DNA from: Bacteroidia bacterium
GTDB lineage: Bacteria > Bacteroidota > Bacteroidia > Chitinophagales > Saprospiraceae
DNA: 64,000 nt
Assembly (NCBI GenBank): GCA_030430845.1
Contig: JAUIKE010000016.1
Coordinates: forward strand, 1-64,000
Direction of reading: 5' to 3'
Shown: positions 1 through 22,344 of the stretch, in pieces
How positions within the stretch are numbered: the first letter of the stretch is position 1
Layout: every line of letters begins with the position of its first letter
Translations under genes and position numbers: made by a program
Notes under the pieces: model-generated
Database searches by the model: none
The model's input: only the letters and a program-made list of their open reading frames with translations
Told to the model about the DNA's origin: nothing

Positions 1-40
1 GGAAATGATCTTCAAAACCTCGTATGATGGCAGTTCTCAT
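1..40 (-). CDS. Possible 5' end of a gene running off the left edge
   Basis: An ATG on the minus strand at 40-38 opens a frame that stays open to the window edge for 13 codons (MRTAIIRGFEDHF). It lies 18 bases after the pseI stop, in the same orientation, so it could be the next gene of the pseudaminic acid/surface glycan operon. The fragment is too short to assign a family. The frame could be open by chance. Confidence 0.3.
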   Translation of the reverse strand, partial: MRTAIIRGFEDHF

Positions 41-58
41 ATGTGCTTATTCAATTTT

Positions 59-1105: not shown

Positions 1106-1158
1106 ATGAAAAACGATTCTTTTTTATCTTTCTACTTTCCCTGACCGCCGAATCCGCT

Positions 1159-5537: not shown

Positions 5538-5609
5538 AGGATTCTCAATTTTCGTCAAAGATAAAAAAATATACAAAGCCTGGATATCGAGCGAAAATAA
5601 GTAAGAATG

Positions 5610-5617
5610 CAAATTTA
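5610..5617 (-). promoter_or_regulatory. Candidate -7 promoter box for the pse operon
   Basis: On the minus strand this reads TAAATTTG, an exact match to the Bacteroidota sigma-A -7 consensus TAnnTTTG, and it lies 73 bases upstream of the pseB start. No clear TTG -33 element is seen at the usual spacing. The box sits at the outer edge of the left arm of the 24-bp inverted repeat. Role is inferred from consensus and position only. Confidence 0.45.
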
Positions 5618-5667
5618 AGTGTGGAGTATACACCACCGCCGCCGGTGTATACTGCACACTTAAATTT
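5611..5667. repeat. 24-bp inverted repeat in the pseB/GT2 divergent region
   Basis: Arms 5611-5634 and 5644-5667 are reverse complements with one mismatch, around a 9-base GC-rich loop (ACCGCCGCC). A further 7-bp outer match (TAAGTAA/TTACTTA) continues the stem with interruptions. It lies between two divergently transcribed genes, so it cannot be an ordinary terminator for either. Both arms carry an outward-reading TAAATTTG at their ends, so it may be a shared operator or a duplicated divergent promoter. Confidence 0.85.
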
Positions 5668-5703
5668 GTTCCTTTACTTATTAGGCTGCCTCCAAATAAT
5701 GCC

Positions 5704-5711
5704 TAAATTTG
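5704..5711 (+). promoter_or_regulatory. Candidate -7 promoter box for the GT2 gene
   Basis: TAAATTTG matches the Bacteroidota -7 consensus TAnnTTTG exactly and ends 21 bases before the GTG at 5733. A second copy of the same eight bases lies at 5661-5668 in the inverted-repeat arm. If this box is used, an upstream TTG start at 5709 would lie inside the promoter, which supports the GTG at 5733. No good -33 element is seen. Confidence 0.45.
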
Positions 5712-5732
5712 CACCACAAAAAAAGAACCATT

Positions 5733-6671: not shown

Positions 6672-6672
6672 T

Positions 6673-7968
6673 ATGAAAAAATTCTTGCTCATTACTTATT
6701 ATTGGCCTCCGGCGGGAGGGGGAGGGGTTCAGCGCTGGCTGAAAATGACCAAATACTTTCGCGAATTCGGTTGGGAGCCCATCATTTATACTGCTGATGA
6801 AGGAGAACAGGCGGCTTACGACCCGAGCCTGGTCAGAGAGGTGCCGGAAGGAATAGAAGTGGTAAGAACTCCGATTTGGGAGCCGTATGATTTATATAAA
6901 AAATTTACGGGTAAGAAAAAAGGGGAAAAAGTGTACTCCGGTTTTATCAGCGAAGGGAAAAAATCTTCCTTGACACAGGAACTGTCGGTATTTATCAGAG
7001 GGAATTTTTTTATACCCGATGCCCGCCGTTTTTGGATCAAACCTTCCATTCGTTTTTTGAAAAAATACCTGGAAGAAAACCCCGTGGAGGCTATTGTATC
7101 CACAGGGCCCCCACACAGCATGCACATGATTGCCCTGGGGATTAAAAAGTATCATAACATACCCTGGGTGGCTGATTTCAGAGACCCCTGGACACAGCAG
7201 GATTTTTACGATCAGTTGAAACTCAGTTGGCTGGCTGACCGCACCCATAAGCGAATGGAACAGAAGGTTTTAAAAAATGCCGATCGCATTGTGACCGTGA
7301 GCTGGAGTTGGGCCAAGGACTTTTACTCTTTGAGCAAGGGTCGGGAGATTGATTTGATTACCAATGGCTTCGATCCAGCCGATTTTGAGTCCATCGTCAC
7401 ACAAAGAGATGAAGCCTTCACGATTTGTCACATTGGGTCGATGAACAAGGATCGCAATCCGCGCATTTTGTGGGAGGTTATCTCACAGGTAAAAAAGGAA
7501 AACACCGTTTTTGCCGAAAAACTAAAGATCAAATTGATCGGACAGGTGGATTTTGCAATCCTGGAAGCAATAGAACAGTATGGCTTATCGGATCATTTGG
7601 AGCGATTGGATTTTATGCCCCATGCGGATGTGGTGGAGCATATGAAAAGAGCCCAGTTGCTTTTGCTACCGATTAACAGTACGCCCAATGCAATGGGCAT
7701 TCTTCCCGGTAAATTATATGAATACCTGGGGGCAAAACGGCCCGTTCTGGCCATCGGTCCTTTGGAAAGTGATGCGGCTAAGGTCATCCATTTGACTAAG
7801 GCAGGCACGATCAACGATTATTCGGATGCGGAAGGCCTGCAAAAGAATATGTCAAACTATTTTAAGCGGTATCTGGAAGGGGAATTGGAAGTGGAGAGTT
7901 CGGGAATTGAGCAGTTTTCCAGGAAAGCCTTAGCAGGGAAGTATTCGGAGTTATTTAATAGTATATAG
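6673..7968 (+). CDS. Glycosyltransferase family 4-type
   Basis: This 431-residue GT-B fold glycosyltransferase begins with the glycine-rich acceptor loop typical of the family (YYWPPAGGGGVQRW). It has the C-terminal nucleotide-sugar region: FTICHIGSMNKDRNP opens the second Rossmann domain, and LPGKLYEYLGAKRPVLAIGP carries the E-x7-E-like donor site. No signal peptide is seen; it should act at the cytoplasmic membrane face. It starts one base after the GT2 stop. Donor and acceptor cannot be told. The stop codon lies within the palindrome shared with the convergent YfhO gene. Confidence 0.86.
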   Translation: MKKFLLITYYWPPAGGGGVQRWLKMTKYFREFGWEPIIYTADEGEQAAYDPSLVREVPEGIEVVRTPIWEPYDLYKKFTGKKKGEKVYSGFISEGKKSSLTQELSVFIRGNFFIPDARRFWIKPSIRFLKKYLEENPVEAIVSTGPPHSMHMIALGIKKYHNIPWVADFRDPWTQQDFYDQLKLSWLADRTHKRMEQKVLKNADRIVTVSWSWAKDFYSLSKGREIDLITNGFDPADFESIVTQRDEAFTICHIGSMNKDRNPRILWEVISQVKKENTVFAEKLKIKLIGQVDFAILEAIEQYGLSDHLERLDFMPHADVVEHMKRAQLLLLPINSTPNAMGILPGKLYEYLGAKRPVLAIGPLESDAAKVIHLTKAGTINDYSDAEGLQKNMSNYFKRYLEGELEVESSGIEQFSRKALAGKYSELFNSI

Positions 7969-8005
7969 AATAAGGAGGGCGGCCGCCCTCCTTATTCTAT
8001 ATACT
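7960..8005. terminator. Perfect 23-bp palindrome shared by two convergent genes
   Basis: The arms 7960-7982 and 7983-8005 are perfect reverse complements with no loop (centre GCGGCCGC). The structure covers the TAG of the GT4 gene and almost all of the TAG of the convergent yfhO-like gene. It would form a strong hairpin in both transcripts, so I call it a bidirectional terminator. It lacks a long T run, so function is inferred from position and stem. Confidence 0.75.
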
Positions 8006-10535
8006 ATTTCTTCTTTTTCTTTCTGTTACCACTCGTTGTTTTCCTTACCGGCTTCTTCGCAGGAGCTTTCTGAGCCGGCTTAGGCTCTGGCTGAGAAGTT
8101 GAAGCTTCCTTCCGTATTTTCATTACTCCTTTAAAGGTTGCAAAAGCCGCCGCCGCAAGTAACAAGATCGAAGAAGCGGCAGATACGGCCGTGCCGACGG
8201 CGTAAGCACGCGGCTCGAACTTGAATTCGATCGTATGTTGACCTGCTGGGATTTTCAGAGCTCTAAGAACATAATTGACCCGAATGTGATCAGCTGGATT
8301 ACCGTCGATATAAGCATTCCAGCCTTTGTTCGGACCGTACCAGATCTCTGAAAAGACAGCCAGCTGGTCGGAGGAACTGTTACTTGCATAGGTCAGGTCA
8401 TTCGGCTCGTAGTTGGTTAGCTGAATGCTTCCTTCTCCATTAGGGGACAGGCCTTGCACATAGCTCGAAAATTCCTGGTGGACAATCGCCTCTGAGGCTG
8501 GATTGAAATTAGCCAGGGCATCGATCTCCTCGTTGGCAGAGTTGACCATCCGAATATTACTTACAAACCAGGCATTTCCCAAGGCATTTTGGTTCAACTG
8601 AGCGGTAGCCTGGCCGCTTTGATCCGGTACGATGAAATATTTGGCGTTCAGCATATTTAGGATCTTCTGGTCGTTACGGGCCAGATACCTTTCAATGATG
8701 TCCTGATAGCGTTGAAGCTTAGCCGCATGATAGCCTCCGATGGTTTTATGGAAATAGGAAGCATCCGCACTGTTCCAAACGTCTCTGGTTAGGTCGTGTA
8801 CCCGGTAATAGGGATCGGGGTCTGCCATGATTTGCTGATCGGCAGGCCGGGCCTGGAATACATTCGTAGCTGCAGATTTATTGACAAAGTCATCCGTGGT
8901 GAGATATCTACGACCTACCTGCCAAAGGTCAAATACCGTAATAAGGGCCAACCCAATGATGAAAATGTTTTTGGTGAGATAATTTTTGATGAAGGCCCAG
9001 ATCAATCCACCCGTCAATACAATGAATATCAGCGACCGAATAGAATCCGAGGTCATAAGGGCCTTTCGGTCCTCAATTAATGCTCCAATATTTATTCCGA
9101 TCTGGGATTCATAGTAACCGTCATTCTGGCTGCTGAAGTCAAACATGGACGGTCCCATTAAAATGAAAAACAGACAGATCGCTCCCAAAATACCAGCAGA
9201 AATATACAAGGCTGACAGCACCTTCTTCTTATTGAGGTCATCCTTTAATAATTCATTGACTCCCAACACTCCTAGTATTGGAACGAGTAAAGCGGTTACA
9301 CTCAAAACCGAATTAGGCGTCCTAAACTTGTTAAATAATGGGAAATAATCGAATAAAAAGCCATTGAACCAAGGTAGGTATTTTCCCAGGGACAGCATCA
9401 CTGTCAAGAGCACACCAAGACCTAACCAGTATTTTACTGGGCCTTTAACGAGAAAAAGCCCCAGCAAAAACAGCAAAAAGACACCTGCCCCAAAATAATT
9501 CGGACCGGTTGCTCTCAGCGGTCCCCAATAAAGCGGGGCTGAAAAATTATCGGGCAGGCGTTGGCCTCTTTGTGCATAAAAGCTGCGCAAAGCCGAACCG
9601 GAGCCCAGAGATTCGCTGTATGAACCTCCCACTACTCCTGGAATGAGGGTAGAAAAGAGATCCAGTGAACTCATACTGTAATCCATGGCATAATCCCAGG
9701 TTAAGCCATCAATTTCACTATTACTTTGAGCCGCCTGAGCGGACTCTGCTTCTTTTAGGATAGGGGTTCCCCGGGTAGTCGATTTGGCATAATCATAAGT
9801 GATCCAAAGATTGGAAAAAGCGGTTCCTCCAGCCAGCAAGCCTCCAACAATCACCACCGCTGCTGCTTTTAGGAAATGCTGCATTTCTCCCTTCCGATAG
9901 CTATAAACGAGTTGTGCGATCCCGAAAATCAGAAAAGTCAGCAAGAGGTAATAAGTCATCTGAATGTGGTTAGCCAACAGATTCAGCCCCGTACCAATCC
10001 CAAAGGCCAATCCTCCCAGCAAGTATTTTCGTTTTCGGAAAGCCAACAAGACACCGGCCATCATCAGCGGCAGGTAGAAAAGACTACCGAGTTTTGACAT
10101 ATGCCCCGCCTCGAATAAAATGAAGTTATTGGTTGTGAAGCCCCAGGCGATACCTCCCAGAACACCGAGCCAGGGGTTAGCCCCTAGGCTGACCATTAGA
10201 ATATAAAAACAGAGCATGGCCGTAAAAAACAGCCCTATGGGACGACTGATCCACAACCTGATTGCTTTATCGATGATTTGGAGGTTGTTGCCACTCCTGA
10301 CACTACTGATTTGATAAGTGGGCATTCCACTGAACATGGAGTTGGTCCACAGAGTGGTTTTTCCCGTACGCTTTTTATAATCGGTCATCTCCTTCGACAT
10401 ACCGCGGTACTGGTTAATATCACCTGGCCTTATAGCCTTTCCCTGTAGTTGAGGAGAGAAGTATACTGCAGTTATGATTAGAAAAATAAGGATGGCCGCA
10501 AGGTGAGGCCACATACTTTTAATTGTGCTGTTCAT
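8004..10535 (-). CDS. YfhO-family multispanning membrane protein
   Basis: An 843-residue integral membrane protein of the YfhO family, which in characterised cases is linked to glycosylation of cell-envelope polymers (GT-C-like fold). It has an N-terminal membrane segment (LAAILIFLIITAVYFSP), an early loop with the family's PGDINQYRGM and TLWTNSMFSGMP motifs, about a dozen hydrophobic helices to residue 540, a soluble region of about 220 residues, and a final helix (VSAASSILLLAAAAFATFKG). The C-terminal 40 residues are very Lys/Pro-rich and probably cytoplasmic. Neighbouring glycosyltransferases support a glycan role. Exact reaction unknown. Confidence 0.84.
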   Translation of the reverse strand: MNSTIKSMWPHLAAILIFLIITAVYFSPQLQGKAIRPGDINQYRGMSKEMTDYKKRTGKTTLWTNSMFSGMPTYQISSVRSGNNLQIIDKAIRLWISRPIGLFFTAMLCFYILMVSLGANPWLGVLGGIAWGFTTNNFILFEAGHMSKLGSLFYLPLMMAGVLLAFRKRKYLLGGLAFGIGTGLNLLANHIQMTYYLLLTFLIFGIAQLVYSYRKGEMQHFLKAAAVVIVGGLLAGGTAFSNLWITYDYAKSTTRGTPILKEAESAQAAQSNSEIDGLTWDYAMDYSMSSLDLFSTLIPGVVGGSYSESLGSGSALRSFYAQRGQRLPDNFSAPLYWGPLRATGPNYFGAGVFLLFLLGLFLVKGPVKYWLGLGVLLTVMLSLGKYLPWFNGFLFDYFPLFNKFRTPNSVLSVTALLVPILGVLGVNELLKDDLNKKKVLSALYISAGILGAICLFFILMGPSMFDFSSQNDGYYESQIGINIGALIEDRKALMTSDSIRSLIFIVLTGGLIWAFIKNYLTKNIFIIGLALITVFDLWQVGRRYLTTDDFVNKSAATNVFQARPADQQIMADPDPYYRVHDLTRDVWNSADASYFHKTIGGYHAAKLQRYQDIIERYLARNDQKILNMLNAKYFIVPDQSGQATAQLNQNALGNAWFVSNIRMVNSANEEIDALANFNPASEAIVHQEFSSYVQGLSPNGEGSIQLTNYEPNDLTYASNSSSDQLAVFSEIWYGPNKGWNAYIDGNPADHIRVNYVLRALKIPAGQHTIEFKFEPRAYAVGTAVSAASSILLLAAAAFATFKGVMKIRKEASTSQPEPKPAQKAPAKKPVRKTTSGNRKKKKK

Positions 10536-10652
10536 TATTACCGTCTTTAATCATTCAGGCCTGAAAATAAGGAATTGATCCATTAAACAAATAAGGAAGC
10601 TGTTATTTTTATTTAACACAGTTCATTCCGAGTTTTTGAGGCAGCTTATAAA

Positions 10653-10797
10653 GCCTTGTTTTTCAATTATTTAGTCTTTGTTGCTCGTTGTTAGTTGTTC
10701 GTTTTCGGCGATTAAACGGACAACTAATTGAAAATCAAGGCTTAGTTAAATAAACGATTTTTCAAAGCCCTCTTTTAACAAATAGGGGAGGACTTAT
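10653..10797. repeat. Interspersed repeat family A, copy 1
   Basis: This block of about 145 bp matches 28216-28354 in order and sequence. Shared parts are TTGCTCGTTGTTAGTTG, then CGTTTTC-GCGAT, then ACGGACAACTA, then AAAATCAAGG-TTAGTT, and finally CCCTCTTTTAA-A-ATAGGGGA. Its outer parts 10653-10669 and 10725-10741 are an imperfect inverted repeat (17 bp, one mismatch). It sits directly 3' of gpsA; the other copy also sits directly 3' of a minus-strand gene. The rest of the gpsA/yfhO gap (10536-10652) shows nothing I can name. Confidence 0.8.
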
Positions 10798-10798
10798 G

Positions 10799-11857
10799 CT
10801 AATTGGGTTTTGTTTCCAAAAAATCAACATCTACCGCATAAGGATAGGTCATTAAAAAATTTAAGGCTTTGTCAATGTCATACTCTTCAAATACGACTTT
10901 ATAGAGTAGGTCTGTTATGGGGATTCTCAGGCGATACGTTCTGGCCAGCTTGTAAATTACCTTGAGCGTACGTACGCCCTCTGCCAGTTCAGGCATACTT
11001 TTTTGGATCTCAGCCATTTCTTCGCCCTGGCCAAGCCGGTATCCAAATGTAAAATTCCGGCTGCTTTTACTGGTACAGGTAGCTACCAGATCGCCGATTC
11101 CGGCCACCCCAAAGAAGGCACTGCTGTCGGCGCCCATGGATTTTCCGAAGTTGATCATCTCATGCCAGCCCCGGGTGATGAGCACCGCCTGGATATTTTT
11201 TCCCAGGTTCCGGCCCCTGAGGATTCCTGAACCAATGGCGATGATGTTTTTTAAGGCACCGGCCAGCTCCGCTCCCATTAGGTCGTGAGAGCCAAAAACA
11301 TAAAAATGTTCGCTGGCCAATACTTTTTTCCCCAACTCTATTACTTCTTCAAAGTGACTGCTGATAACCGTAGCAGTTGGCTGCCCCTCCATGATCTCAC
11401 TGGCCAGATTAGGCCCTGACAGGCACCCGACCCGCAAGACCACACTCTCTTGGCGAATGACTTCGCTCATCGAGTGGACATCTTTGCGCTGGATCTGCTC
11501 TTGTTGTTGAAGAAGGGTCTCAGAATAGTCAAATCCTTTTGTGCCGTGAATGAGGATGTGGTAAGGCTTTAAAAAAGGGCCTAATTCTTTCATCATCTGT
11601 CGGAAACTGCCGGATGGAACAATGGGGAAGATTAAGTCGCATTGCTCCGCAATCTTTTGCAAGTCATTGACCGCCAGGATTCTTTTAGATAGGTCCACCC
11701 CCAGGTTCTGATGCTGGGTATTTATTTGTTCTACCAGGTCATTATTTCGGCTGTACAGGCGTACATCTACATTATAAGCCAGTAAATTGGCAATGGACGT
11801 ACCAAAACTTCCCGCTCCGATAACTCCAACAGGCTTCCGATAGATGGTTTCTGACAT
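10799..11857 (-). CDS. gpsA: Glycerol-3-phosphate dehydrogenase GpsA
   Basis: GpsA reduces dihydroxyacetone phosphate to sn-glycerol 3-phosphate with NAD(P)H, supplying phospholipid backbones in the cytoplasm. The roughly 350-residue protein opens with the dinucleotide fold VGVIGAGSFGTSIANLL and keeps HGTKGFDYS, the SGPNLASEI signature, and the catalytic lysine region AGALKNIIAIGSGI. It also has the C-terminal GVAGIGDLVATCTS and ELAEGVRTLKVIYKLA segments. I place the start at 11857 (MSETIYRK); an in-frame ATG seven codons upstream at 11878 is equally possible. It appears to be transcribed alone. Confidence 0.93.
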   Translation of the reverse strand: MSETIYRKPVGVIGAGSFGTSIANLLAYNVDVRLYSRNNDLVEQINTQHQNLGVDLSKRILAVNDLQKIAEQCDLIFPIVPSGSFRQMMKELGPFLKPYHILIHGTKGFDYSETLLQQQEQIQRKDVHSMSEVIRQESVVLRVGCLSGPNLASEIMEGQPTATVISSHFEEVIELGKKVLASEHFYVFGSHDLMGAELAGALKNIIAIGSGILRGRNLGKNIQAVLITRGWHEMINFGKSMGADSSAFFGVAGIGDLVATCTSKSSRNFTFGYRLGQGEEMAEIQKSMPELAEGVRTLKVIYKLARTYRLRIPITDLLYKVVFEEYDIDKALNFLMTYPYAVDVDFLETKPN

Positions 11858-11906
11858 ATTGATTTGTCGATTTTCCAATTTGATGGTAAATGTAAGGAAA
11901 AAAGTT

Positions 11907-11985
11907 GTCTGGGGGTCTGGTAGCCTGGCGGTTTGTTTTTTTGAAAATTAATAAATCATCCCGCCAGACGACCAGACGACCAGAC
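11907..11985. repeat. Inverted repeat containing AGACGACC tandem copies
   Basis: The left arm 11907-11931 (GTCTGG-GGTCTGGTAGCCTGGCGG) pairs with the right arm 11961-11985 with several mismatches. The right side is a tandem run of the 8-mer AGACGACC (CCAGACGACCAGACGACC). It lies between gpsA and the caspase gene, upstream of both, so it is not a terminator. It is probably an interspersed or expanding repeat. Confidence 0.65.
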
Positions 11986-12020
11986 GACCAATAAATCTTT
12001 TTATTTTCACAGATCCCTCT

Positions 12021-12028
12021 TATATTTG
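12021..12028 (+). promoter_or_regulatory. Candidate promoter of the caspase/MoxR locus
   Basis: TATATTTG matches the Bacteroidota -7 consensus TAnnTTTG and ends 25 bases before the ATG at 12054. No convincing -33 TTG is found 17-23 bases upstream, so strength is uncertain. It would drive the caspase gene and perhaps the genes after it. Confidence 0.5.
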
Positions 12029-12053
12029 AAAAATACTATTTAATACGAAACCC

Positions 12054-13460
12054 ATGTCGGACGAAAACAACTACAGAGCGGGAAGAACCCCGGAAGATTC
12101 AACTGAAAGCAAGGAACAAAAAAGTGGTCATAATTATCTATTGGTAATCGGTATTGACCGATACAATGAATTTCCAAGGTTGTATAATGCTGTAAAAGAT
12201 GCTCAGGATTTCAAAGCGCTTATGCTCGATCGGTTTCAATTTGATAAGAGCCGGGTATTTGAGCTATTTGACGATCAAGCTACCTCTGGTAATATTTTCA
12301 GTATGTTGAAACAGCTTCGGCGCTTGTTGAAGCCGGAAGATAGCTTGTTGGTTTACTTTTCCGGTCACGGAGAGTATGATAAAGATATTGAGGAGGGCTT
12401 TTGGATTCCCTTCGATGCAGAAAACGGGGAAAGTCATACTTATCTTGACTTTGGAATGGTTAAAAAATTTATTCGGGCTATTAAATCTTTACATACTTTT
12501 ATTATTGCCGATTCTTGTTATTCCGGGACGCTTTTTTCGGAACGCAGTAAAGGCAAACAATATTTACCAAAGGATTTTTTCCTTCCATCGCGGTATGTGC
12601 TAACGGCCGGCCGCAATGAAGTAGTTTCCGACGGCCGTCCTGGAGATAACAGCCCTTTCGCAGAGAGTTTGATGTATCATCTGAAAAATGATCAGGGACC
12701 TTATATTAGTTTGACAGAATTATGTGAGAAGGTGAAAACGGATGTGAGTTCTAATGTCGACCAAATGCCTAGGTATGGGTCAATTCATGGGATTGGAGAC
12801 AGAGGCGGGATGTTCTATTTCTTTGAAAAAGGGTACATGCCGGAAAGACCTCCAAAAGAATCCCTTGTGTCCGGAGGAGAAAAACGAGAAGCACGTACGC
12901 CAAGCGAACCAGCTATTGAAACGCCGGCGCCCCCTGTCATCCGCAGCCTGGCGGATCTGGCTCAGGCACTCAAGAATAGTTTGCAGATCCGTGATTTTGA
13001 AGAAACCTTTGCCATCGTCCATAAGTACCTGAAAACAGATTCCGGCGCCTACAATGACTGGATCTTCCAGCAAGGTCGTTACAGCGGCATCGTCCGGCAG
13101 CAGAAAAAAGGCCTGATCGACAACGACTTCGCTCAGCGCACTTACAACCAAATCGCCGATGCCCTCGTATACCAGATTGATAAGTTAAAGGAATCGGATG
13201 TCAACATTCCCAAAACCTTAGAGCCTGAAATCAACGGCGATACAGAGATAGATAGCGGCCCATTTTGGGACAGGATCCACCAACTAGACCTGGAAAGCCT
13301 CAAACGACAGGCCACTTCCTGGAAGGAAAAAATTGCGTATTTTGAAGAAGAAGCCCCTTTGGTCACGGATATCGAACAGAAGTTTGTGCTTAAAAAAAAG
13401 CTGGAAGACGCCAAAAAGAAGTATAATGCTCTGATTAAAACAATCAATGAAAAGGAGTGA
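12054..13460 (+). CDS. Caspase-like (C14) protease with EAD11-like tail
   Basis: A 468-residue cysteine protease of the caspase/metacaspase clan. The peptidase domain covers about residues 25-260: strand LLVIGIDRYNEFPRL, the catalytic histidine in YFSGHGEYD (His105) and the catalytic cysteine in IIADSCYSGTLF (Cys155). No signal peptide is seen, so it is cytoplasmic. After a Pro/Glu-rich linker, residues about 300-382 match the pattern of effector-associated domain EAD11 (RDFEETFAIVHKYL, then GRYSGIVRQQKKGLI). Residues 405-468 are predicted coiled coil. EADs in known conflict systems couple effectors to other components by like-with-like contacts. It is followed by iSTAND-like and MoxR genes, so I infer a proteolytic effector of an immune or cell-death system. 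Substrate unknown. Confidence 0.85.
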   Translation: MSDENNYRAGRTPEDSTESKEQKSGHNYLLVIGIDRYNEFPRLYNAVKDAQDFKALMLDRFQFDKSRVFELFDDQATSGNIFSMLKQLRRLLKPEDSLLVYFSGHGEYDKDIEEGFWIPFDAENGESHTYLDFGMVKKFIRAIKSLHTFIIADSCYSGTLFSERSKGKQYLPKDFFLPSRYVLTAGRNEVVSDGRPGDNSPFAESLMYHLKNDQGPYISLTELCEKVKTDVSSNVDQMPRYGSIHGIGDRGGMFYFFEKGYMPERPPKESLVSGGEKREARTPSEPAIETPAPPVIRSLADLAQALKNSLQIRDFEETFAIVHKYLKTDSGAYNDWIFQQGRYSGIVRQQKKGLIDNDFAQRTYNQIADALVYQIDKLKESDVNIPKTLEPEINGDTEIDSGPFWDRIHQLDLESLKRQATSWKEKIAYFEEEAPLVTDIEQKFVLKKKLEDAKKKYNALIKTINEKE

Positions 13461-13555
13461 AAAAGTGAAAGGGTGAAAAAGTGTAACAGTTCATACGGTC
13501 AATATCTGCCAAATGCTGTTTCACCGTTACACTCTTAAACGGTTACACTTAAAAT
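13461..13555. repeat. GTGAAA/GTTACACT repeat spacer
   Basis: The 95 bases between the caspase gene and the next gene hold short direct repeats of GTGAAA-A-GTG on the left (13457-13485). On the right (13521-13552) are two copies of GTTACACT, which are the reverse complement of the left AGTGTAAC. The region can fold into a loose hairpin. No promoter box is seen, so the downstream gene may be co-transcribed with the caspase. Confidence 0.45.
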
Positions 13556-14650
13556 ATGCCTGATACTGAACTCAACAGCCTGGAAAACCGCCGGCAGGAT
13601 CTTAAGAATATCCTGGGAGGCCTGTACGAGGAACTGCCGACTACGACGGATCCCGAACAAAAGGCTGCGCTCCGTGTCAAAATCGGGCAGTACGAACGTT
13701 CCCTGGCTGAGATAGAGCGCCAGATCAAAAGAGCTTCAGGCCTGGATACTTTTGAAGAAGGTGGCGTCCTGTTTGATATGGCCAAATTGTTGAGCATCAG
13801 AAAGCGGCTGCCTGAGTTATATTTGGTCAATTGCGATCGTTCGGAGGTCGTGTTTGACTTTTGGGATTCTTTTGAAGATCATCGCGAGCGACACAATCCT
13901 TACCAATTTTATTTCCTGCTGGCCTGCCCCACTCAACAGCCGGATAGCTTTGGCGAACGAATGGTATACGAATTGAGGAAAGAAGAGCTTAAAGACCGGC
14001 CGGAGGCTGTATTGTTCAAACGGCGGTCCGACGGTAAGCGAGTAGCCTTTGATGAATTGCCCCTCGGCCGCAATCTGGTAAAAGCCCAAAATGCTTTTAA
14101 AACTTATTTTAGTGAACGCTTCGGTTTGCATCAGTCCAACACCTCTTTTGAGGAATACCTCAATACGGGTCTGCCTACCCTTGGTTTTGAATATGTGACA
14201 CTTACCTTCGAGATCCAGGCCGGCGACTGGAACCCCAGGATGATGAAGGATTACCTGCGTTGGTTGGTGGATACTTTCACAGATGCTCATGACCAGGTCC
14301 CTACCTTTTGGTTTATGTTTGTTATTTTCATCAAAAATGCACATAAAGAGAAATTATCCAGAAGGTATCAAAAGGTAATGGATGATGTAAAAGCGGTGGT
14401 AGAGGCCACTCCTGAAAAGTCGACCTTACTGACACCTCTCGAACCGGTGGAACAAGAATTTCTGGAGGAGTGGCTGCTGAAAGTTGATGAAGAAAACAGT
14501 GCCTCCAAAATCGAGGATTTGATCAAAACCTTCATCGATTGCCTGCCGGAAGATAAAAAACAAGACGCAAAAAATAATGAGTTCCTGGATATGACCGATA
14601 TTCAACGATTACAGCAGATCATCTATCAAATATCACACACCAAAGAATAA
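13556..14650 (+). CDS. Coiled-coil protein with iSTAND-like domain
   Basis: A 364-residue soluble protein. Residues 5-62 form a coiled coil (LENRRQDLKNIL; TDPEQKAALRVKIGQYE) that resembles the C-terminal tail of the caspase before it, which has TDIEQKFVLKKKLEDAK. Residues about 88-290 begin with LYLVNCDRSEVVFDFW and a strand FYFLLACPTQQ, then SFGERMVYELRKEEL. This resembles the inactive-STAND (iSTAND) domains of Aravind-type conflict systems, in which the P-loop is lost. No Walker A motif is present. The C-terminal 70 residues are acidic and helical. Its stop abuts the ATG of the MoxR gene, a tight pair. It may be the adaptor that links caspase to ATPase. The domain call is moderate; an unrelated fold is possible. 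Confidence 0.6.
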   Translation: MPDTELNSLENRRQDLKNILGGLYEELPTTTDPEQKAALRVKIGQYERSLAEIERQIKRASGLDTFEEGGVLFDMAKLLSIRKRLPELYLVNCDRSEVVFDFWDSFEDHRERHNPYQFYFLLACPTQQPDSFGERMVYELRKEELKDRPEAVLFKRRSDGKRVAFDELPLGRNLVKAQNAFKTYFSERFGLHQSNTSFEEYLNTGLPTLGFEYVTLTFEIQAGDWNPRMMKDYLRWLVDTFTDAHDQVPTFWFMFVIFIKNAHKEKLSRRYQKVMDDVKAVVEATPEKSTLLTPLEPVEQEFLEEWLLKVDEENSASKIEDLIKTFIDCLPEDKKQDAKNNEFLDMTDIQRLQQIIYQISHTKE

Positions 14651-15577
14651 ATGGAATATTTTGACCTTTTACAAAACAATGAGCAGATTTCCCTGCCTGA
14701 TTTTGAGGTAAATGAGCGGCTAAATGCCCCTAATCTTTACCTTCCCTCCCGCGGCCTGGCCGATGCAGTACAGGTAGCTGTTTCCTTGGGTTTGCCTTTG
14801 CTCCTGACCGGTGAGCCAGGTACGGGTAAAACACAATTGGCACATTATGTAGCCTGGAAGTTTGATTTAGGAAAACCCTTGGTTTTTAATGCCCAAACGA
14901 CTTCTACGGCCTCTGAGCTTTTTTACAAGTACGACGCCCTGGCTCATTTCCAATTTGCCCAGAACCGAAAGGAAGTATTGGATAAAAAAGAGATTGAGGA
15001 TAAGTTTATCAAATACCAGGCGCTTGGAAAAGCCATTCAATCCAAAAAGCGACAGCTTGTGCTCATAGACGAGATCGATAAGGCGCCAAGGGACTTGCCG
15101 AATGATATTTTAGCGGCTCTGGAAGATCTGGAATTCACCGTTCCGGAGGTAGACGAACATTACCAAACCACCCCGACCAAACGGCCGATCATCATCATGA
15201 CGTCCAATTCGGAGAAAAACCTGCCGGATCCTTTTTTGAGGCGGGTGATCTATTTTGATATTCCGTTTCCTAATGATGAAACCTTACTGAAAATAGTCAG
15301 TTCAAAAGTGGAAGGCTTCGAGGATGCCCAGCTGAAAACTATCATAGCGCATTTTGATAATATTCGAAAAGATCCTGCCTTGAGATTGAAGAAAAAACCG
15401 GCTACTTCGGAATTAATCTTCTGGACGATTCTTTTGAAAAAACTGGGTTTTAATCCGGATTGGCTGAAGAACCCAGGCAAAATGGATGATACGCAGAAAA
15501 GAAATTTGATGAGTTCGTACTCAGTACTGGCAAAGACTAAGGAAGACTTGAAAGCATTAAGGAGTAGATCGTTGTGA
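14651..15577 (+). CDS. MoxR-type AAA+ ATPase
   Basis: A 308-residue AAA+ ATPase. Walker A is GEPGTGKT (residues 54-61), Walker B is LVLIDEID (136-143), sensor-1 lies in IIMTSNSEKNLPD (Asn186), and arginine-finger candidates are in FLRRVIYF (Arg197/198). The MoxR-like layout (GLPLLLTGEPGTGKT followed by AHYVAWKF) is clear, though the C-terminal lid is short. MoxR ATPases work as chaperones with a vWA-domain partner. Such a domain is predicted in the next gene. The start directly follows the preceding stop (TAAATG), indicating coupling. A gap of 185 bases with a repeat hairpin separates it from the large membrane protein. Confidence 0.88.
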   Translation: MEYFDLLQNNEQISLPDFEVNERLNAPNLYLPSRGLADAVQVAVSLGLPLLLTGEPGTGKTQLAHYVAWKFDLGKPLVFNAQTTSTASELFYKYDALAHFQFAQNRKEVLDKKEIEDKFIKYQALGKAIQSKKRQLVLIDEIDKAPRDLPNDILAALEDLEFTVPEVDEHYQTTPTKRPIIIMTSNSEKNLPDPFLRRVIYFDIPFPNDETLLKIVSSKVEGFEDAQLKTIIAHFDNIRKDPALRLKKKPATSELIFWTILLKKLGFNPDWLKNPGKMDDTQKRNLMSSYSVLAKTKEDLKALRSRSL

Positions 15578-15762: not shown

Positions 15763-18700
15763 ATGAAAAACCCTCTTCTCCATACCCTCATCGCCGACCT
15801 CCTCCGCAGCCTGGAGCAGGAAGGTATTGCCCTGGGGACCGGCCGGCACCTCAAGGTGCAGGAGCTATGGAGAAGACTACCCGAAGACATCGAACCAGAA
15901 CGCCTCAAAACCCTCCTCGTTCCACTTTTTGCCACCAACCCTCAGGAACAGGAACGCTTTTACGCCGTTTTTGACAAAAGCTGGAGACGAGTACAGGATC
16001 TGAATAGGGTAGAAGAGGCCAAGCCCAAAGAACCCATAAAGGAAGAAGTAGCCGAAAAAAACTGGCGCTGGTTATTGTATATGGCCGCTGTACTTTTTTT
16101 GGCCGCCCTGGCCTGGATATTATTCAGAACGAATACCGCTTTTAAGCCTGTCAACAATTTTCATGAAATCCCTTTGAATATTTACCGGGGAGATACGCTC
16201 GTCCAGGATCCTATTTTGAGGAGAGAAGAAACAGACACATTACGCCAGCTAGCCTTTTTGGATGGAGAACAATATGCCATTGACTCGATATGGGGGGAAT
16301 ACGAGATCGATAGTTTTAATCAAATAATTATTCGAGCGGGCGATACGGTAGGACAGCATATAGATACCCTAGTGGTTAGAGCCTTGTATAATACAGGTCT
16401 GGATTCCATGCACTTTGTATTGAATTTATTGGAAAAACGAAGCACTCCTTTACCTGAAAAGGAAGTACTGCCTGAAAAGAAAGCTCCACGCCTAAAGACT
16501 AAAGAAATTCCCTACAAGCACGATTTGCCCATTCCAAATCAGGCGGCTTTAGAAAAAGAAGCTTTCTGGAAAAAAAATCGCTGGTGGATCAAGACCAGCT
16601 TGATCCTTTTGCTGGCCTTATTGATCGTTACCTTAGCGGAATGGCTGGAGCGCCGCCGTAAAAAAGCCGTGGCTCACTTGCAAAGAGCCCACAACGGCCC
16701 GCCCTATGCCTGGACGGTCGATCTGGACGAGCCGGAAGAACTGGCTGTGGGACTGCAAGCCAAACAGCTGACCAACCGACTGCGCCGACGTCAACTAGAA
16801 GACTACCATCGGATCGATATCCCGGCTACCGTAAAGGCCACAGCCCGCTCTGCCGGGCAGGTTCATTTACAGTACCGCCAGCCTTCCAAGCCCTCTGAAT
16901 ACCTCCTGCTCATCGACCGTAATGCGATGCAGGATCATCGGGCTCTTTTGTATGATAATTTATACGAATCCTTCAAGCAGGAAGAGGTCCATATTGATCG
17001 CTTTTTCTATGACGGCAGTCCGCAAGTGGTTTTTAACGAAAAATACCCTGGTGGATTACCACTCAAAGAGCTGCAACATCGCTTCAGTGAAGCTCGGCTT
17101 TTGATTGTAGGAGATGGTCAACGTTTTTTCAACCCCATTGATGGAGAATGGGCCGGCTGGACGGAGGAATTGAACAACTGGAAGGCACGCGGCTTGCTGA
17201 CAACCAAACCTTTGGACAAATGGTCGTACGATGAAGACCTCCTCGCTCAACGTTTTTTTCTGCTGCCTGCTACCTTACAAGGTGTCGACCGGCTCATTGA
17301 GCAATTCGAGTTGGTGGATCCCAAACCCTGGGAGGAGGTCGTTAAACAAATAGATGATTCCACTAAGGAAAGCATTGTATTCAAGGATGATCTGCTGACG
17401 ACCTTACAACAACATTTTTCCAACCATATGCTACAATGGATCGCTGCCTGTGCGGTGTATCCGCAATTGCAATGGAAGATGACTCTGCACTTAGGTAAAG
17501 AGCTCTCTACGGGACAGGACAATTTATTGACCGTAGAGAACATACTGAATCTCGTTCGGCTGCCCTGGTTTGTAGAAGGGAAAATTCCCGATCCGGCCCG
17601 GGTGGTATTGATCGAGTATCTAAAAAGGGAAGGATTGGAAACCAAAGTGAGGGAGACCATCAAGATTTTACTCGATAAAGCCCCCAGGCCCTCGGAGGAC
17701 TCGGTAGCTTATGAAAAGTGGCGGGTCAATCAATTATTTAACGAAATACAGGTCTCAGCTCCTTCTCCGAAAAGAAGGCAACTAAAAAGAGAGTTGGAGA
17801 ATTACCTAGAAGCTGGTTTTCAGCCTGATCAGATAACGATCCAGAGCCTAGAGAGAGAAAATGTGCCAGGCATGGCAGCAGAACTGCCTGACCGGTGGAA
17901 GGAATTATTATTTCGGGAAGGAGAAGGGATATTTGGTTTTAAGACAAGGTTATGGGCCGTTCCGTCCTGGTTAATCTTAAGCGGCTTGATTTTGTGGTTC
18001 AACCCTAATTATCGGGCTTGTAAAGGATATTTAGTCATTTTTGAAGACCAGCAACTCTGTCTGGAAACGGAGGCCGACCAGATTATTTATAATGACTATT
18101 TGTCTAGGAAGACCATCCGGGATGCCAGTCGGTTGGGAGGTTACGCTAATGCAAAGGTTGTGGTATTTCCTTTTGAGTATATAGGCAGTGATGGAAATGC
18201 ACAGAACACCGAGGATTTGCCTCAATCAGAGCAGGCTGCGATTGACATGACCGACACTCTTTATCAGTATTTCATAACTGGCTTAAGGGAAAGCATAGGG
18301 CTGGATATAGAGTCCATCCCACCCAATTTACCCTACGATGATAGACAAGATAATGTTAATACAGTGCGAAGGCTTGGTGCGGATTTCATTCTCAGTGGCA
18401 CAGCCCGACAAATTAATGGAGAATTCCAACTGAATGTTCATATTACGGACGGCTTAAGTGGCCGACAACATACTTCTCGAATGATTTCTGGGGTGGGAGG
18501 TACATTTAGGAGTTTTATCGATGATTCTATCAGCACTAAAATGTATAGTTTTCCAAGTATTGATGTCAACTCTCTTATTTACGGGACTTCTTTCACGCCG
18601 GAATTTTTTAAGATATACGAAAATCTTTACGTCGACCGAGGGCTGGACGCATTCTTCCCATTTGAGGCCAACTCCATGGTCCTACTGGATAGCTTTTCCA

Positions 18701-21261
18701 TTTATGCGGCCTATCTTCCTTCCCGTTTGGATGACCCTAAGGAATTGAAAGATGTCATGATCAATCCGCTCCAGGATTCCCTGGAGGCTTATAATCAACG
18801 AGAAAATGATGATCGGGGGCGATTGTTGGGTGACCAGTATATAGAAAACCTCGCTACGGCCTTGTATAACAAAGGTGTTGCCTTATTCAATACCTATCTC
18901 GATCTAAAAGAGGGGATTCTTTCCGATACGTTGGACCTGGCTCCACGTTACTTGGACGAGAGTGCCTTTAGTTTGTTATTGGCCAAAGATCTCCGGACCT
19001 CTATGCCGGAGGTTTTTACGGCTTTGCTCCGAGTGTATGGAGAAAACGAAACCCTTATTTTTCCCAAAACGCTCACTGGGCAGGTGACAGCGGCTGGTCG
19101 AGCCCTTACCGACGTTCAGGTTAGTTTTGAGGGCGGATACGATGCACTAACGGATGCCAATGGACAGTACACTATTAATTTGCCGGAGGACTGGGACAAC
19201 AACATTTTGCAGCTCAATTTTTTCAAACCAGGTTATCGTGTACAAAAGATAACACACATTTTGATTGACGAAAACAGTGATCAGGTCCGAACGGTTGAGC
19301 TAGCGCCCATTCCGCAAGATCAGGAAGATCAATTAGTTATATTCTCGGGGCCAAATTCCCCTTTGAAAGGCGTTCGAACCCGGACTGGGGACATCATTAT
19401 TCCGGCCAATTATAGCAACATAGAGAAAGATTCTGAAACGGGCTATTACCGGGTAGAAACACCGGCGACGCGTATTGGCTCTTCCTTTGGATATTATGAC
19501 CAGCGGGGTCAGATTGTGGTGCCGGCCATTTATTCTTACCTGGACTTTTACTCTGAAGGTTTAGCGGTAGCCTGGGAAAAAGATGGCAAGTTTGGGTATT
19601 TAAACGTTCAGGGTAGCAAGGCTTTTCCTTTTAACTTTGAAAGGGCCGAAGCATTTTCTGATGGTGAAGCAGAGGTGAGCGTACAAAACCCATTTAGTGG
19701 TGAGGCCGTTCGGTTTACCATTGGAAAAGATGGAAAGTGTACGGAGGCCGCTGCCTGTCCGTATGGGACTATAGTAGAAAATTACATTTTGGCTATATGC
19801 AGACAAGATCCCGGTGTTTTTGAAAGTAGGGTGATCGGCAAGGAAAAAGCAGCCGACATTTTCATGATCCTAAACACCGATTTCATGAGGATATTCTTCC
19901 CTCAGAGAATTTTGGAGACTGCTAATAATTGTTTGCCCGATGTTGAATTATTTGTCAATGGTTATTTAATCAACCTATACATATATGCTACACTAGCCGA
20001 CCAGATCCCGGAAGCTGCTAAAGAGAAGGTACTAGAACTGTTAAACACCCTGGAAGACGATCCTGAAACCCGGTCCCGGATGATCAGCAAAAACCCGAAT
20101 GTGGAGCAATGGATTAGTACTTTAGAGAATGCATTAGGCTTGAATGAGCAGCAAACGTTCACCGATCCCAATCCAATCGCAAGCCTGGGGACCTTCCGTT
20201 CGGGAGATAAGATCCTGTCATATTATTTTGATGTCAACCAGCCATTTGGTAAAGTAGCCGGCTATGATGTAGAGCGTGCTTCTCAAAATTATCTCAATAA
20301 ACTTCGTGGCCAAAATGCCACGGCCTCAGAAGGCCTGCCCTTCCAGGTCGATCGCCTGAAAAGCCTGGCCGATCAATTGTATCGAGAGCTTGGTCAAAAC
20401 TATGGACACACCATTGAGTTGATTGCCTATGCCGATAGTGAAGAAGGTGCCAATCAGACTTTGCTTCAGGCCAGGGTAGATGTCATTCAGGATTATTTGA
20501 TCAACTACAATAATGGTGCGCTCCGTCCTTTTGTTTCCGGCTCCGGTGTGATAAACATTATCAAAAACACCAAAGAAGGCATTCCGCGGCCCCCTACTAA
20601 CCAGTCACAGTCCGAATCTTATTCTACTACCGCCTGTAATAACCGCCGGGTGGATGTTATTTTCCGCCGCCGGACCCAGCATCAGCAGATTCAGCGGCCG
20701 CGGCAGGGGAATTCGGGAGCCCCTCAGCAGGGGGATAATTCCACGGTACCTACAGACAATGCCGTTAACATCCGTGATCGTGACGGCAACAGCTATCCCA
20801 TCAAGGTCATGGCGGATGGCAGGCGATGGATGACGAAGAATTTGAATATTCAAGTGAATGATTCGTGGTGTTATGAAAATAAGGCGGAGAATTGCGCGGA
20901 GTATGGGAGGCTGTATACCTGGGAAGCTGCTAAGGAGGCTTGTCGGTTGTTGGGGGATGGGTGGAGATTGCCGACAGATGAGGAGTGGGGGAGTTTAAGA
21001 GATGCATATGGAGGTGAACAGGGAGCCTACAAGGCATTAATTGAGGGTGGAGACAGTAAGTTTACTGCTCAGCTAGGTGGCTGGCGCAATAACATTGGCA
21101 GTTTCCACGACTTGGATTCAAATGGTTACTACTGGTCCAGTACGCCAAACGGTGGTTCCGGCGCGTGGAACTACTACTTCGACCGCAACTACGGTGAGTT
21201 ATATCGCTACTACTTCAATCGTGGAGACGGCCATGCCGTTCGTTGTCTTCAGGATGATTGA
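15763..21261 (+). CDS. Giant membrane protein: vWA-like core, TolB_N/WG/OmpA-like/Fib_succ exported part
   Basis: An 1832-residue multidomain protein. Residues 1-100 are probably cytoplasmic, with a membrane helix at about 101-121, an extracytoplasmic segment at 122-273, and a second helix at 274-294. The cytoplasmic region 295-728 includes a Rossmann-like unit (about 379-515: YLLLIDRNAMQ, ARLLIVGDGQRFF) that I read as a vWA domain with a degenerate metal site (D-x-N instead of DxSxS). A possible third helix is at 729-747. Then come TolB_N-like (about 798-905; VFPFEYIGSD, LGADFILSGTARQ), a carboxypeptidase-regulatory unit (1104-1180; TLTGQVTAAG), WG repeats (1200-1320), an OmpA-like domain (1480-1636; NNRRVDVIF) and a Fib_succ_major/FGE-like domain (1667-1832). 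It follows the MoxR gene, so it is the likely vWA partner. Domain limits are estimates. Confidence 0.72.
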   Translation: MKNPLLHTLIADLLRSLEQEGIALGTGRHLKVQELWRRLPEDIEPERLKTLLVPLFATNPQEQERFYAVFDKSWRRVQDLNRVEEAKPKEPIKEEVAEKNWRWLLYMAAVLFLAALAWILFRTNTAFKPVNNFHEIPLNIYRGDTLVQDPILRREETDTLRQLAFLDGEQYAIDSIWGEYEIDSFNQIIIRAGDTVGQHIDTLVVRALYNTGLDSMHFVLNLLEKRSTPLPEKEVLPEKKAPRLKTKEIPYKHDLPIPNQAALEKEAFWKKNRWWIKTSLILLLALLIVTLAEWLERRRKKAVAHLQRAHNGPPYAWTVDLDEPEELAVGLQAKQLTNRLRRRQLEDYHRIDIPATVKATARSAGQVHLQYRQPSKPSEYLLLIDRNAMQDHRALLYDNLYESFKQEEVHIDRFFYDGSPQVVFNEKYPGGLPLKELQHRFSEARLLIVGDGQRFFNPIDGEWAGWTEELNNWKARGLLTTKPLDKWSYDEDLLAQRFFLLPATLQGVDRLIEQFELVDPKPWEEVVKQIDDSTKESIVFKDDLLTTLQQHFSNHMLQWIAACAVYPQLQWKMTLHLGKELSTGQDNLLTVENILNLVRLPWFVEGKIPDPARVVLIEYLKREGLETKVRETIKILLDKAPRPSEDSVAYEKWRVNQLFNEIQVSAPSPKRRQLKRELENYLEAGFQPDQITIQSLERENVPGMAAELPDRWKELLFREGEGIFGFKTRLWAVPSWLILSGLILWFNPNYRACKGYLVIFEDQQLCLETEADQIIYNDYLSRKTIRDASRLGGYANAKVVVFPFEYIGSDGNAQNTEDLPQSEQAAIDMTDTLYQYFITGLRESIGLDIESIPPNLPYDDRQDNVNTVRRLGADFILSGTARQINGEFQLNVHITDGLSGRQHTSRMISGVGGTFRSFIDDSISTKMYSFPSIDVNSLIYGTSFTPEFFKIYENLYVDRGLDAFFPFEANSMVLLDSFSIYAAYLPSRLDDPKELKDVMINPLQDSLEAYNQRENDDRGRLLGDQYIENLATALYNKGVALFNTYLDLKEGILSDTLDLAPRYLDESAFSLLLAKDLRTSMPEVFTALLRVYGENETLIFPKTLTGQVTAAGRALTDVQVSFEGGYDALTDANGQYTINLPEDWDNNILQLNFFKPGYRVQKITHILIDENSDQVRTVELAPIPQDQEDQLVIFSGPNSPLKGVRTRTGDIIIPANYSNIEKDSETGYYRVETPATRIGSSFGYYDQRGQIVVPAIYSYLDFYSEGLAVAWEKDGKFGYLNVQGSKAFPFNFERAEAFSDGEAEVSVQNPFSGEAVRFTIGKDGKCTEAAACPYGTIVENYILAICRQDPGVFESRVIGKEKAADIFMILNTDFMRIFFPQRILETANNCLPDVELFVNGYLINLYIYATLADQIPEAAKEKVLELLNTLEDDPETRSRMISKNPNVEQWISTLENALGLNEQQTFTDPNPIASLGTFRSGDKILSYYFDVNQPFGKVAGYDVERASQNYLNKLRGQNATASEGLPFQVDRLKSLADQLYRELGQNYGHTIELIAYADSEEGANQTLLQARVDVIQDYLINYNNGALRPFVSGSGVINIIKNTKEGIPRPPTNQSQSESYSTTACNNRRVDVIFRRRTQHQQIQRPRQGNSGAPQQGDNSTVPTDNAVNIRDRDGNSYPIKVMADGRRWMTKNLNIQVNDSWCYENKAENCAEYGRLYTWEAAKEACRLLGDGWRLPTDEEWGSLRDAYGGEQGAYKALIEGGDSKFTAQLGGWRNNIGSFHDLDSNGYYWSSTPNGGSGAWNYYFDRNYGELYRYYFNRGDGHAVRCLQDD
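21080..21255 (+). other. Candidate DGR variable region in the Fib_succ domain
   Basis: The last 58 codons of the giant gene are rich in Trp, Tyr, Asn and Gly. They include eight consecutive codons ending in C (21171-21194: AAC TAC TAC TTC GAC CGC AAC TAC) and a later CGC TAC TAC TTC. This is the pattern expected when AAC codons of a template are mutated at their two adenines by a diversity-generating retroelement. The invariant end GHAVRCL fits a C-type-lectin/FGE fold core strand. No reverse transcriptase or template repeat is in the window, so this is a candidate only; Fib_succ domains are naturally Tyr/Asn-rich. Confidence 0.35.
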
Positions 21262-21295
21262 ATATTTGATCATTTCTTATTTCGAGCTATCGGAG

Positions 21296-21337
21296 GGCAA
21301 GCTTCAGCTTGCCAGGACGGCAAACTTCAGTTTGTCG
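21296..21337. repeat. REP-like palindrome pair, 5' of the RAYT
   Basis: Two small palindromes lie in tandem: GGCAAGCTTCAGCTTGCC (21296-21313) and GGCAAACTTCAGTTTGTC (from 21319), separated by AGGAC. They are the same units found on both sides of the transposase gene and at 55.8 kb. They lie 35 bases after the giant gene's stop and could end its transcript. The stretch 21338-21519 shows nothing else recognisable. Confidence 0.85.
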
Positions 21338-21519
21338 TAACATAAACAAAAGACCACTACGCAATTTTACTTATCTATTTCTAATTGCTGCATTGCCTAA
21401 TTATACTAAGCAATAAAATTGGTTTGTACTCTAATATGATTAGTATGGGCTATCGTGATATTGTATAATGAATTGATTATTTGTGGTTTATGTTGAAAAG
21501 GCCTATCTTGTTTTTCTCC

Positions 21520-21625
21520 ACAAGCTAAAGCTTGCGGTCCTGGCAAGCTGAAGCTTGCTGTCCTGTATCCTACTGGACAGCAAACTTTAGTTTGCCAGGA
21601 GAGCGAACTTCAGTTTGCTCCTCTC
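21520..21625. repeat. REP/BIME cluster upstream of the RAYT gene
   Basis: This cluster holds CAAGCTAAAGCTTG, GGCAAGCTGAAGCTTGC, CAGCAAACTTTAGTTTGCC and GAGCGAACTTCAGTTTGCTC, each a near-perfect palindrome. The two middle units are joined by a short spacer (21560-21576, TCCTGTATCCTACTGGA). The same order recurs at 22337-22436 downstream of the gene. Such paired palindromes flanking a RAYT gene are the expected BIME arrangement. Confidence 0.85.
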
Positions 21626-21681: not shown

Positions 21682-22344
21682 GTGAAAAAAGCATACAAAT
21701 ACACTAAGCGCCGCTTACCGAGGCATCTCAATGCCGGATCTATTTATTTTGTCACAGTAATGCTTAAAGGGGCTATACCTAAGTCAGCCATAGATAAACT
21801 GAAAGCAGAATATCAAGAAAAGGTCCGTTTATTAGAACTTACACAGCCAAAAGACTTCAAGCTTAGAATGGCCGTGCTGCAGCAGGAACACCTCAAGAAG
21901 TATGACCAATATCTGGATCAAGTGCTTTACGGGCCGACTTATCTAGCGAAAGCCGAAATTGCCGAGATTGTTAAAGAACAATTCCACCGCTTTGAGGGGG
22001 AATTTTATGATCTGCTTGCCTATACCATCATGCCCAATCATTTCCATTTCCTTATTGATACGAGTATTCAAGTGGTGACCCAAGAGGTAGATCCCGAATA
22101 CATCCAGGAAGACTATACAGATTTATCTGAAATCATGAGACGCATTAAAGGGGCTTCTGCCAGATATGCTAATCTGGCTTTGGATCGGAAAGGAAACTTC
22201 TGGCAACATGAGTTTTTTGACCGAATAATAAGAAGTGAGAAGGGGGAGCAGTTTTGTGTTAATTATATATTGAATAATCCAGTGAAGGCGGGATTGGTGG
22301 AGAAATGGGAGGATTTTCCTCATACTTTTATCAAAACAAGCTAA
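21682..22344 (+). mobile_element. REP-associated tyrosine transposase (RAYT, Y1 family)
   Basis: A 220-residue single-strand transposase of the IS200/Y1 superfamily. The HUH motif is in MPNHFHFLI. The region SARYANLALDRKGNFWQHEFFDRIIR, read in two halves, carries the probable nucleophilic tyrosine (SARY) and the FWQ-E-FDR signature. YILNNPVKAGLV is the typical RAYT C-terminal block. It starts with GTG at 21682. RAYTs are domesticated or non-autonomous-style transposases that act on REP palindromes and usually occur as single genes. Here the gene is framed by REP clusters at 21520-21625 and 22337-22436. It may have inserted between the giant gene and the following OmpA-domain gene. Confidence 0.9.

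What the first reader, a model, noticed from the sequence alone, without database searches (positions are those of the whole stretch)
21080..21255. C-terminus of the giant protein looks like a DGR variable region
Eight consecutive NNC codons (AAC TAC TAC TTC GAC CGC AAC TAC) and a later CGC TAC TAC TTC are what adenine-specific mutagenesis of an AAC-rich template yields. The domain is of the FGE/C-type-lectin-like kind used by DGR targets, and DGR-diversified effectors are known in MoxR-vWA systems. No reverse transcriptase or template is in the window, so it would have to act in trans.
Basis: inference. Interest (0 to 1): 0.7.

Follow-up and report, generated by a model that had tools for sequence, protein, structure and literature searches.

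The report
Orphan variable-region-like lectin domain
The tail of a giant protein in a bacterial immune-type gene cluster looks like the hypervariable end that certain retroelements rewrite in its relatives, but neither the reverse transcriptase nor the template is present in this genome, so it is more likely a retired (or never active) target than one being diversified now.

Summary
The codon observation is real: eight NNC codons at 21169-21192 and CGC TAC TAC TTC at 21205-21216. They lie in a Fib_succ_major (FISUMP) domain, not FGE, predicted with high confidence to have a C-type-lectin fold. The giant protein is the putative vWA component of a caspase-EAD11 / iSTAND / MoxR / vWA ternary conflict system.

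A DGR link is plausible. Two homologues of this protein in the same order (G052, G100) are genuine cis-DGR targets with RT, template and adenine-only mismatches. Three viral contigs carry DGRs whose targets are Fib_succ_major domains. The window's last ~61 codons switch abruptly to NNC-rich codons and share third bases with diverged homologues while amino acids differ; one such homologue pair shows a strong mutagenic-homing footprint.

However, the window's genome (94.9% complete) has no detectable reverse transcriptase, no DNA copy and no adenine-tolerant template; the window has no cis template. The sister species carries an FGE domain with ordinary codons at the same place.

Best reading: a CLec tip whose DNA carries an old variable-region footprint, now orphaned (about 0.45). 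Rivals: ordinary codon bias (0.35) and trans-diversification by an unassembled DGR (0.17).

The parts
12054..13460 (+). caspase (Peptidase_C14) with effector-associated domain EAD11
   Evidence: Pfam 8.4e-16 and 6.3e-11
13556..14650 (+). iSTAND component of the ternary system (by orthology)
   Evidence: no Pfam hit itself; 81% identical to the sister-species protein that matches PF19995 iSTAND, 2e-5
14651..15577 (+). MoxR-like AAA ATPase
   Evidence: PF07728 AAA_5 1.9e-12
15763..21261 (+). giant protein, 1832 aa, putative membrane-anchored vWA component of the ternary system
   Evidence: ORF; homologous over ~640 aa to the cis-DGR target L230 (6e-55) and partly to L229 (1e-24); vWA assignment weak by Pfam (VWA_CoxE E 0.17) and otherwise inferred
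20776..21255 (+). C-terminal Fib_succ_major / FISUMP domain, predicted C-type-lectin fold
   Evidence: TIGR02145 2e-30 residues 1672-1831; AlphaFold2 mean pLDDT 95.7; VIA-align Z 10.8 Legionella Lcl, Z 9.5 DGR variable protein TaqVP
21073..21258 (+). variable-region-like segment: third-base C 46% versus 13% upstream in the same domain
   Evidence: boundary equals the VR start motif in the true DGR target L215
21169..21192 (+). run of eight NNC codons (NYYFDRNY)
21205..21216 (+). CGC TAC TAC TTC
   Evidence: near-repeat of 21171-21185 at 21207-21221

Best explanation
The 3' end encodes a C-type-lectin-fold (Fib_succ_major) binding tip on the putative vWA component of an iSTAND-MoxR-vWA ternary conflict system with a caspase effector. 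The tip probably senses a ligand (inferred), the MoxR ATPase and iSTAND/EAD parts relay the signal, and the caspase-EAD11 protein executes (inferred from published models of such systems). Its last ~61 codons descend from a DGR variable region: an ancestor was rewritten by mutagenic homing, leaving NNC-rich codons whose third bases are conserved while first and second bases vary. The DGR has been lost or left behind in this lineage, so the segment is now an orphan, vertically inherited variable region. Shown: domain, predicted fold, gene neighbourhood, codon switch, third-base sharing, absence of RT and template in the assembly. Inferred: DGR ancestry, loss, sensor role.
For: Codon switch at LGGWR (13% to 46% third-base C, p = 1.1e-5), rank 17 of 176 Fib_succ_major domains, above two of the phage DGR targets with a template (ranks 31 and 48). 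At codons with different amino acids the window shares the third base with a G046 homologue (another genus) 25/37 times in the tail (0.31 expected from composition) but 7/46 upstream; two other G046 copies 18/32 and 17/33. That G046 family bears a homing footprint: tandem copies 1 and 2 differ at 27 first/second and 35 third positions upstream, but 30 and 2 in the tail (p = 1.2e-6). Homologues of the giant protein are true cis-DGR targets in G052 and G100. True Fib_succ_major DGR targets with cis template in viral contigs L215, L218, L225. No RT, copy or template in this genome.
Against: No template is known, so adenine specificity cannot be tested for the window; differences from homologues are not enriched for A beyond background (0.56-0.74 in the tail versus 0.57-0.85 upstream and in non-VR-like pairs). 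All cis DGRs found in chromosomes of this order target FGE-type tails, not Fib_succ_major. The strongest VR-like Fib_succ_major domain of the family, in G021 (99% complete and with a DGR RT), also lacks a template. A 9-codon NNC run occurs elsewhere in the same ORF. In the comparison with 176 domains the median jump is +0.08, sd 0.13, so +0.28 is not extreme.
Confidence: 0.45

Rival explanations
1. Never a DGR target: an ordinary Fib_succ_major domain whose beta strands demand Tyr/Phe/Asn/Asp and whose local codon choice happens to favour C. The W-x-Y-x-F and GELxR pattern is a family motif.
For: The motif W(x)Y(x)F and G-E/K-L-x-R recurs in a paralogue in the same genome, C384:25942 (WYYSFRRNDGELWRNTF), with mixed codons. 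NNC runs also occur elsewhere in the ORF. No RT or template in the genome. The sister-species domain at the same place has ordinary codons.
Against: The abrupt codon switch at the VR boundary and third-base sharing with diverged homologues at codons of different amino acid, 25/37, are not expected; synonymous shuffles reach the C count in 0.4%.
Confidence: 0.35
2. Active now in trans: a DGR (RT and template) in the unassembled ~5% of the genome, on a plasmid or on a phage rewrites this tail.
For: The genome is a 396-contig assembly, 94.9% complete. Trans targets are documented in Thiohalocapsa (PMC10907252). Recent homing footprint in G046, whose template is also not in its assembly. Viral DGRs with Fib_succ_major targets exist.
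Against: All chromosomal DGRs of the order with a recognised TR-VR pair carry both in cis; no RT even of another kind in this genome; no template in the 64-kb window.
Confidence: 0.17

Closest known systems
cis-DGR targets among homologues of the same protein, G052:C113 (L229) and G100:C131 (L230), found here
   Same: homologous giant protein, C-terminal CLec-type domain, iSTAND partner next to it (with EAD11 and a MoxR-like ATPase in G052, with TIR in G100), NNC-rich A3-poor tail
   Different: tip is FGE-sulfatase, with a DGR RT (IGNLTSQ motif) and template nearby; the window has neither
DGR-diversified VMAP (MoxR-vWA) ternary systems of Thiohalocapsa, cyanobacteria and gammaproteobacteria (PMC7159879, PMC10907252)
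   Same: MoxR plus vWA plus C-terminal CLec tip; trans targets reported
   Different: third component is VMAP, tip is FGS/FGE, RT and template present
iSTAND ternary systems of Kaur et al. 2020 (PMC7159879)
   Same: iSTAND, MoxR, membrane-anchored vWA protein with swappable C-terminal domain, caspase/EAD partners, frequent in Bacteroidetes
   Different: the commonest tip there is FGS (about 22%); the sections read do not mention Fib_succ_major or DGRs for this class
Fib_succ_major DGR targets of human-gut DGRs and Bacteroides uniformis phages (PMC4159848, PMC8143477) and viral contigs L215, L218, L225
   Same: same domain family; in the viral contigs the VR starts at the same GG(Y/W) motif and ends near the VRC motif
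   Different: template about 1.1 kb downstream of the VR; no link to a conflict system was examined

Membership tests
Diversity-generating retroelement (DGR) target | DGR-type reverse transcriptase in the genome | tested here: not met
   no RVT_1 match and no match to the DGR RT of G002 in G000; assembly 94.9% complete
Diversity-generating retroelement (DGR) target | template repeat near-identical to the VR | tested here: not met
   blastn finds only self; A-tolerant 51-mer with up to 3 mismatches finds only self; none in the window
Diversity-generating retroelement (DGR) target | VR/TR mismatches confined to template adenines | not testable with these tools
   no template found
Diversity-generating retroelement (DGR) target | VR at the C-terminus of a CLec-fold protein | tested here: met
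   Fib_succ_major at the C-terminus, C-type-lectin fold, Z 9.5 with DGR variable protein TaqVP
Diversity-generating retroelement (DGR) target | codon footprint: third bases conserved, first and second variable | tested here: inconclusive
   third-base sharing 25/37 with one G046 copy, weaker with others; C-rich switch; no strain comparison possible
Diversity-generating retroelement (DGR) target | sequence variation between strains or in reads limited to the VR | not testable with these tools
   one genome per species; no reads; the sister species has a different domain at this place
iSTAND MoxR-vWA ternary conflict system | iSTAND protein | tested here: met
   window protein has no own Pfam hit but is 81% identical to a PF19995-positive sister protein
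iSTAND MoxR-vWA ternary conflict system | MoxR ATPase adjacent | tested here: met
   14651-15577, AAA_5
iSTAND MoxR-vWA ternary conflict system | vWA domain in the giant protein | tested here: inconclusive
   Pfam VWA_CoxE only at E 0.17; homology to other giant proteins next to iSTAND genes
iSTAND MoxR-vWA ternary conflict system | variable, exchangeable C-terminal domain | tested here: met
   Fib_succ_major here, FGE-sulfatase in the sister species, on a body 55% identical

The most novel reading that the evidence does not exclude
Fib_succ_major tips of caspase and iSTAND ternary systems in Saprospiraceae are (or were recently) rewritten by a mobile, trans-acting DGR, or by another third-base-sparing homing process, whose RT and template are not resident in the host assemblies (no template was found for the VR-like tails tested in the window genome, G046 and G021).
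Probability: 0.12. Interest if true: 0.85.

Novelty: new variant of a known kind. Interest (0 to 1): 0.45.

Why it matters
DGR-diversified sensors are known for VMAP-type ternary systems. The evidence gathered here adds cis-DGRs on FGE-tipped iSTAND ternary systems in the same order, and a Fib_succ_major-tipped, VR-like but RT-less member in the window. That gives a set of DGR-active, DGR-orphan and DGR-free versions of one immune-type protein, with which the gain, loss or trans use of targeted hypermutation can be studied.

Tried and rejected
A first template pattern was miscoded (T not widened to W) and replaced. Adenine enrichment among differences between the window and its homologues does not discriminate from background. 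Template for the G046 pair: none in 101 genomes. Template for the strongest VR-like domain of G021: none in G021. Cross-search of all Fib_succ_major tails against all loci held found only the viral-contig templates. The RT remnant in the sister species G001 has a group-II-type PQGSLVSP motif and is not a DGR relic. The G046 RT has QGALLSP, not the DGR motif. Viral contigs gave no close relative with the single sequence, phage records only 26% identity, plasmids at best 33% over the full length.

Full report
What is there. The window lies on contig C190 of a 9.1-Mb, 396-contig genome, 94.9% complete. Relatives used here come from the same family and order; named records for the same loci identify the family as Saprospiraceae (G046 loci are Saprospiraceae bacterium IP29b_bin.78, G021 Phaeodactylibacter sp.). 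The finding is the 3' end of an 1832-aa ORF, 15763-21261. Its last 160 residues are a Fib_succ_major/FISUMP domain (TIGR02145 2e-30, PF09603 1.6e-19), predicted at mean pLDDT 95.7. Its best solved-structure matches are C-type-lectin folds, among them Legionella Lcl (Z 10.8) and the DGR variable protein TaqVP (Z 9.5); plain Foldseek gave no E-value below 0.001. It is not an FGE domain, though both belong to the same fold class.

Neighbourhood. Upstream are a caspase-EAD11 protein, a 364-aa protein and a MoxR-like ATPase. The 364-aa protein is 81% identical to a sister-species protein that matches the iSTAND model. This is the layout of the iSTAND MoxR-vWA ternary systems of Kaur et al. (PMC7159879). 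The vWA domain itself is only weakly detected and its assignment rests on homology to other giant proteins in such clusters. In the sister species the same cluster exists, the giant protein is 55% identical over residues 1-1661, but its C-terminal domain is FGE-sulfatase: the tip is exchanged between sister species.

The codon observation. The eight NNC codons and the later four are as stated. Third-base C jumps from 13/97 to 28/61 at the LGGWR motif, 21073 (p = 1.1e-5). Keeping protein and codon usage, synonymous shuffles reach this in 0.4% of trials, and place an 8-run there in 0.02%. A 9-run at codons 8-16 of the same ORF shows that a run by itself proves little. Among 176 Fib_succ_major domains the window ranks 17th in this jump; two DGR targets with a template rank 31 and 48, and the median jump is +0.08.

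Is the DGR idea reasonable? Yes, from relatives. A search for segment pairs whose mismatches lie at adenines in one copy recovers TR and VR at eight of the nine DGR-RT loci first examined in the order, all with FGE-type tails. Two homologues of the giant protein itself are cis-DGR targets: L229 (G052; VR 7796-7924, RT 8515-9510, TR 9527-9655, with EAD11-iSTAND and a MoxR-like ATPase upstream) and L230 (G100; with TIR-iSTAND). Fib_succ_major is a published DGR target domain (PMC4159848, PMC8143477), and three viral contigs found here carry such targets with the template about 1.1 kb downstream of the VR, the VR beginning at the motif where the window's codons switch.

Footprint in homologues. 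In G046 (another genus) three tandem genes, at least two of them caspase-Fib_succ_major fusions, end in VR-like tails. Copies 1 and 2 differ at 27 first/second and 35 third positions upstream but 30 and 2 in the tail (p = 1.2e-6): silent sites homogenised, replacement sites diversified, as mutagenic homing would do. The window's tail shares third bases with copy 3 at 25 of 37 codons that differ in amino acid (0.31 expected), against 7 of 46 upstream; with copies 2 and 1, 18/32 and 17/33. Several other homologues show no such sharing. Adenine involvement in the differences is not above background for the window.

What is missing. The window genome has no RVT_1 match and no match to a DGR RT, no second copy of the tail, no template allowing A at any position with up to 3 further mismatches, and nothing in cis. 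The same absence of a template holds for the G046 pair in 101 genomes and for the strongest VR-like domain of G021, a 99% complete genome that has a DGR RT for another target. A codon panel of the giant-protein family shows three states: cis-DGR (L229, L230), VR-like without a DGR found (window, L234, L051), and ordinary codons (sister species L048, L232, L241, L049).

Verdict. The tail is probably an orphaned variable region of a CLec tip in an iSTAND ternary system (0.45); it may be ordinary codon bias on a Tyr/Phe/Asn-rich lectin strand (0.35); ongoing trans-diversification by an unassembled DGR is possible (0.17). No strain or read data were available to decide. In the two ternary-system papers consulted, DGRs are described for VMAP systems; I found no mention of DGRs on iSTAND systems in the parts read or in the Saprospiraceae search, so the cis-DGR iSTAND loci in G052 and G100 look unreported within that library.

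Noticed in passing
L229 (G052:C113) 1363-9655 and L230 (G100:C131) 6652-13775: iSTAND ternary systems whose FGE-tipped giant protein is a genuine cis-DGR target with RT and template.
   Followed up: partly
L054 (G046:C500) 3-3739: Three tandem Fib_succ_major genes, two fused to caspase domains, with a strong third-base-sparing diversification footprint between copies 1 and 2 but no template in the assembly.
   Followed up: partly
L099 (G015:C45), L100 (G002:C40) and L103 (G034:C134): DGRs with several FGE targets each: three around one template in G015, two in G002 and two in G034.
   Followed up: no
L215, L218, L225: Viral contigs with DGR-type template/variable pairs in Fib_succ_major targets, the template about 1.1 kb downstream of the VR.
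   Followed up: partly
L170, L174, L176, L206, L163: Chitinispirillales/Chitinispirillia and Fibrobacter Fib_succ_major tails show some of the strongest NNC switches (third-base C about 8-17% to 56-67%), with no convincing TR-VR pair within the loci held; candidates for further DGR targets.
   Followed up: no
window 21287-21617 and 21682-22344: REP-like palindromes (GCAAGCTTCAGCTTGC, GCAAACTTTAGTTTGC) directly downstream of the giant gene next to an IS200/Y1-type transposase gene, which resembles a REP-associated transposase.
   Followed up: no
window 15784-15810 (codons 8-16 of the giant ORF): A second, longer run of nine NNC codons (TLIADLLRS) at the N-terminus.
   Followed up: partly
L048 (G001:C8) 5657-11443: Sister-species orthologue with an FGE-sulfatase domain where the window has Fib_succ_major: a C-terminal domain swap within one genus.
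   Followed up: yes
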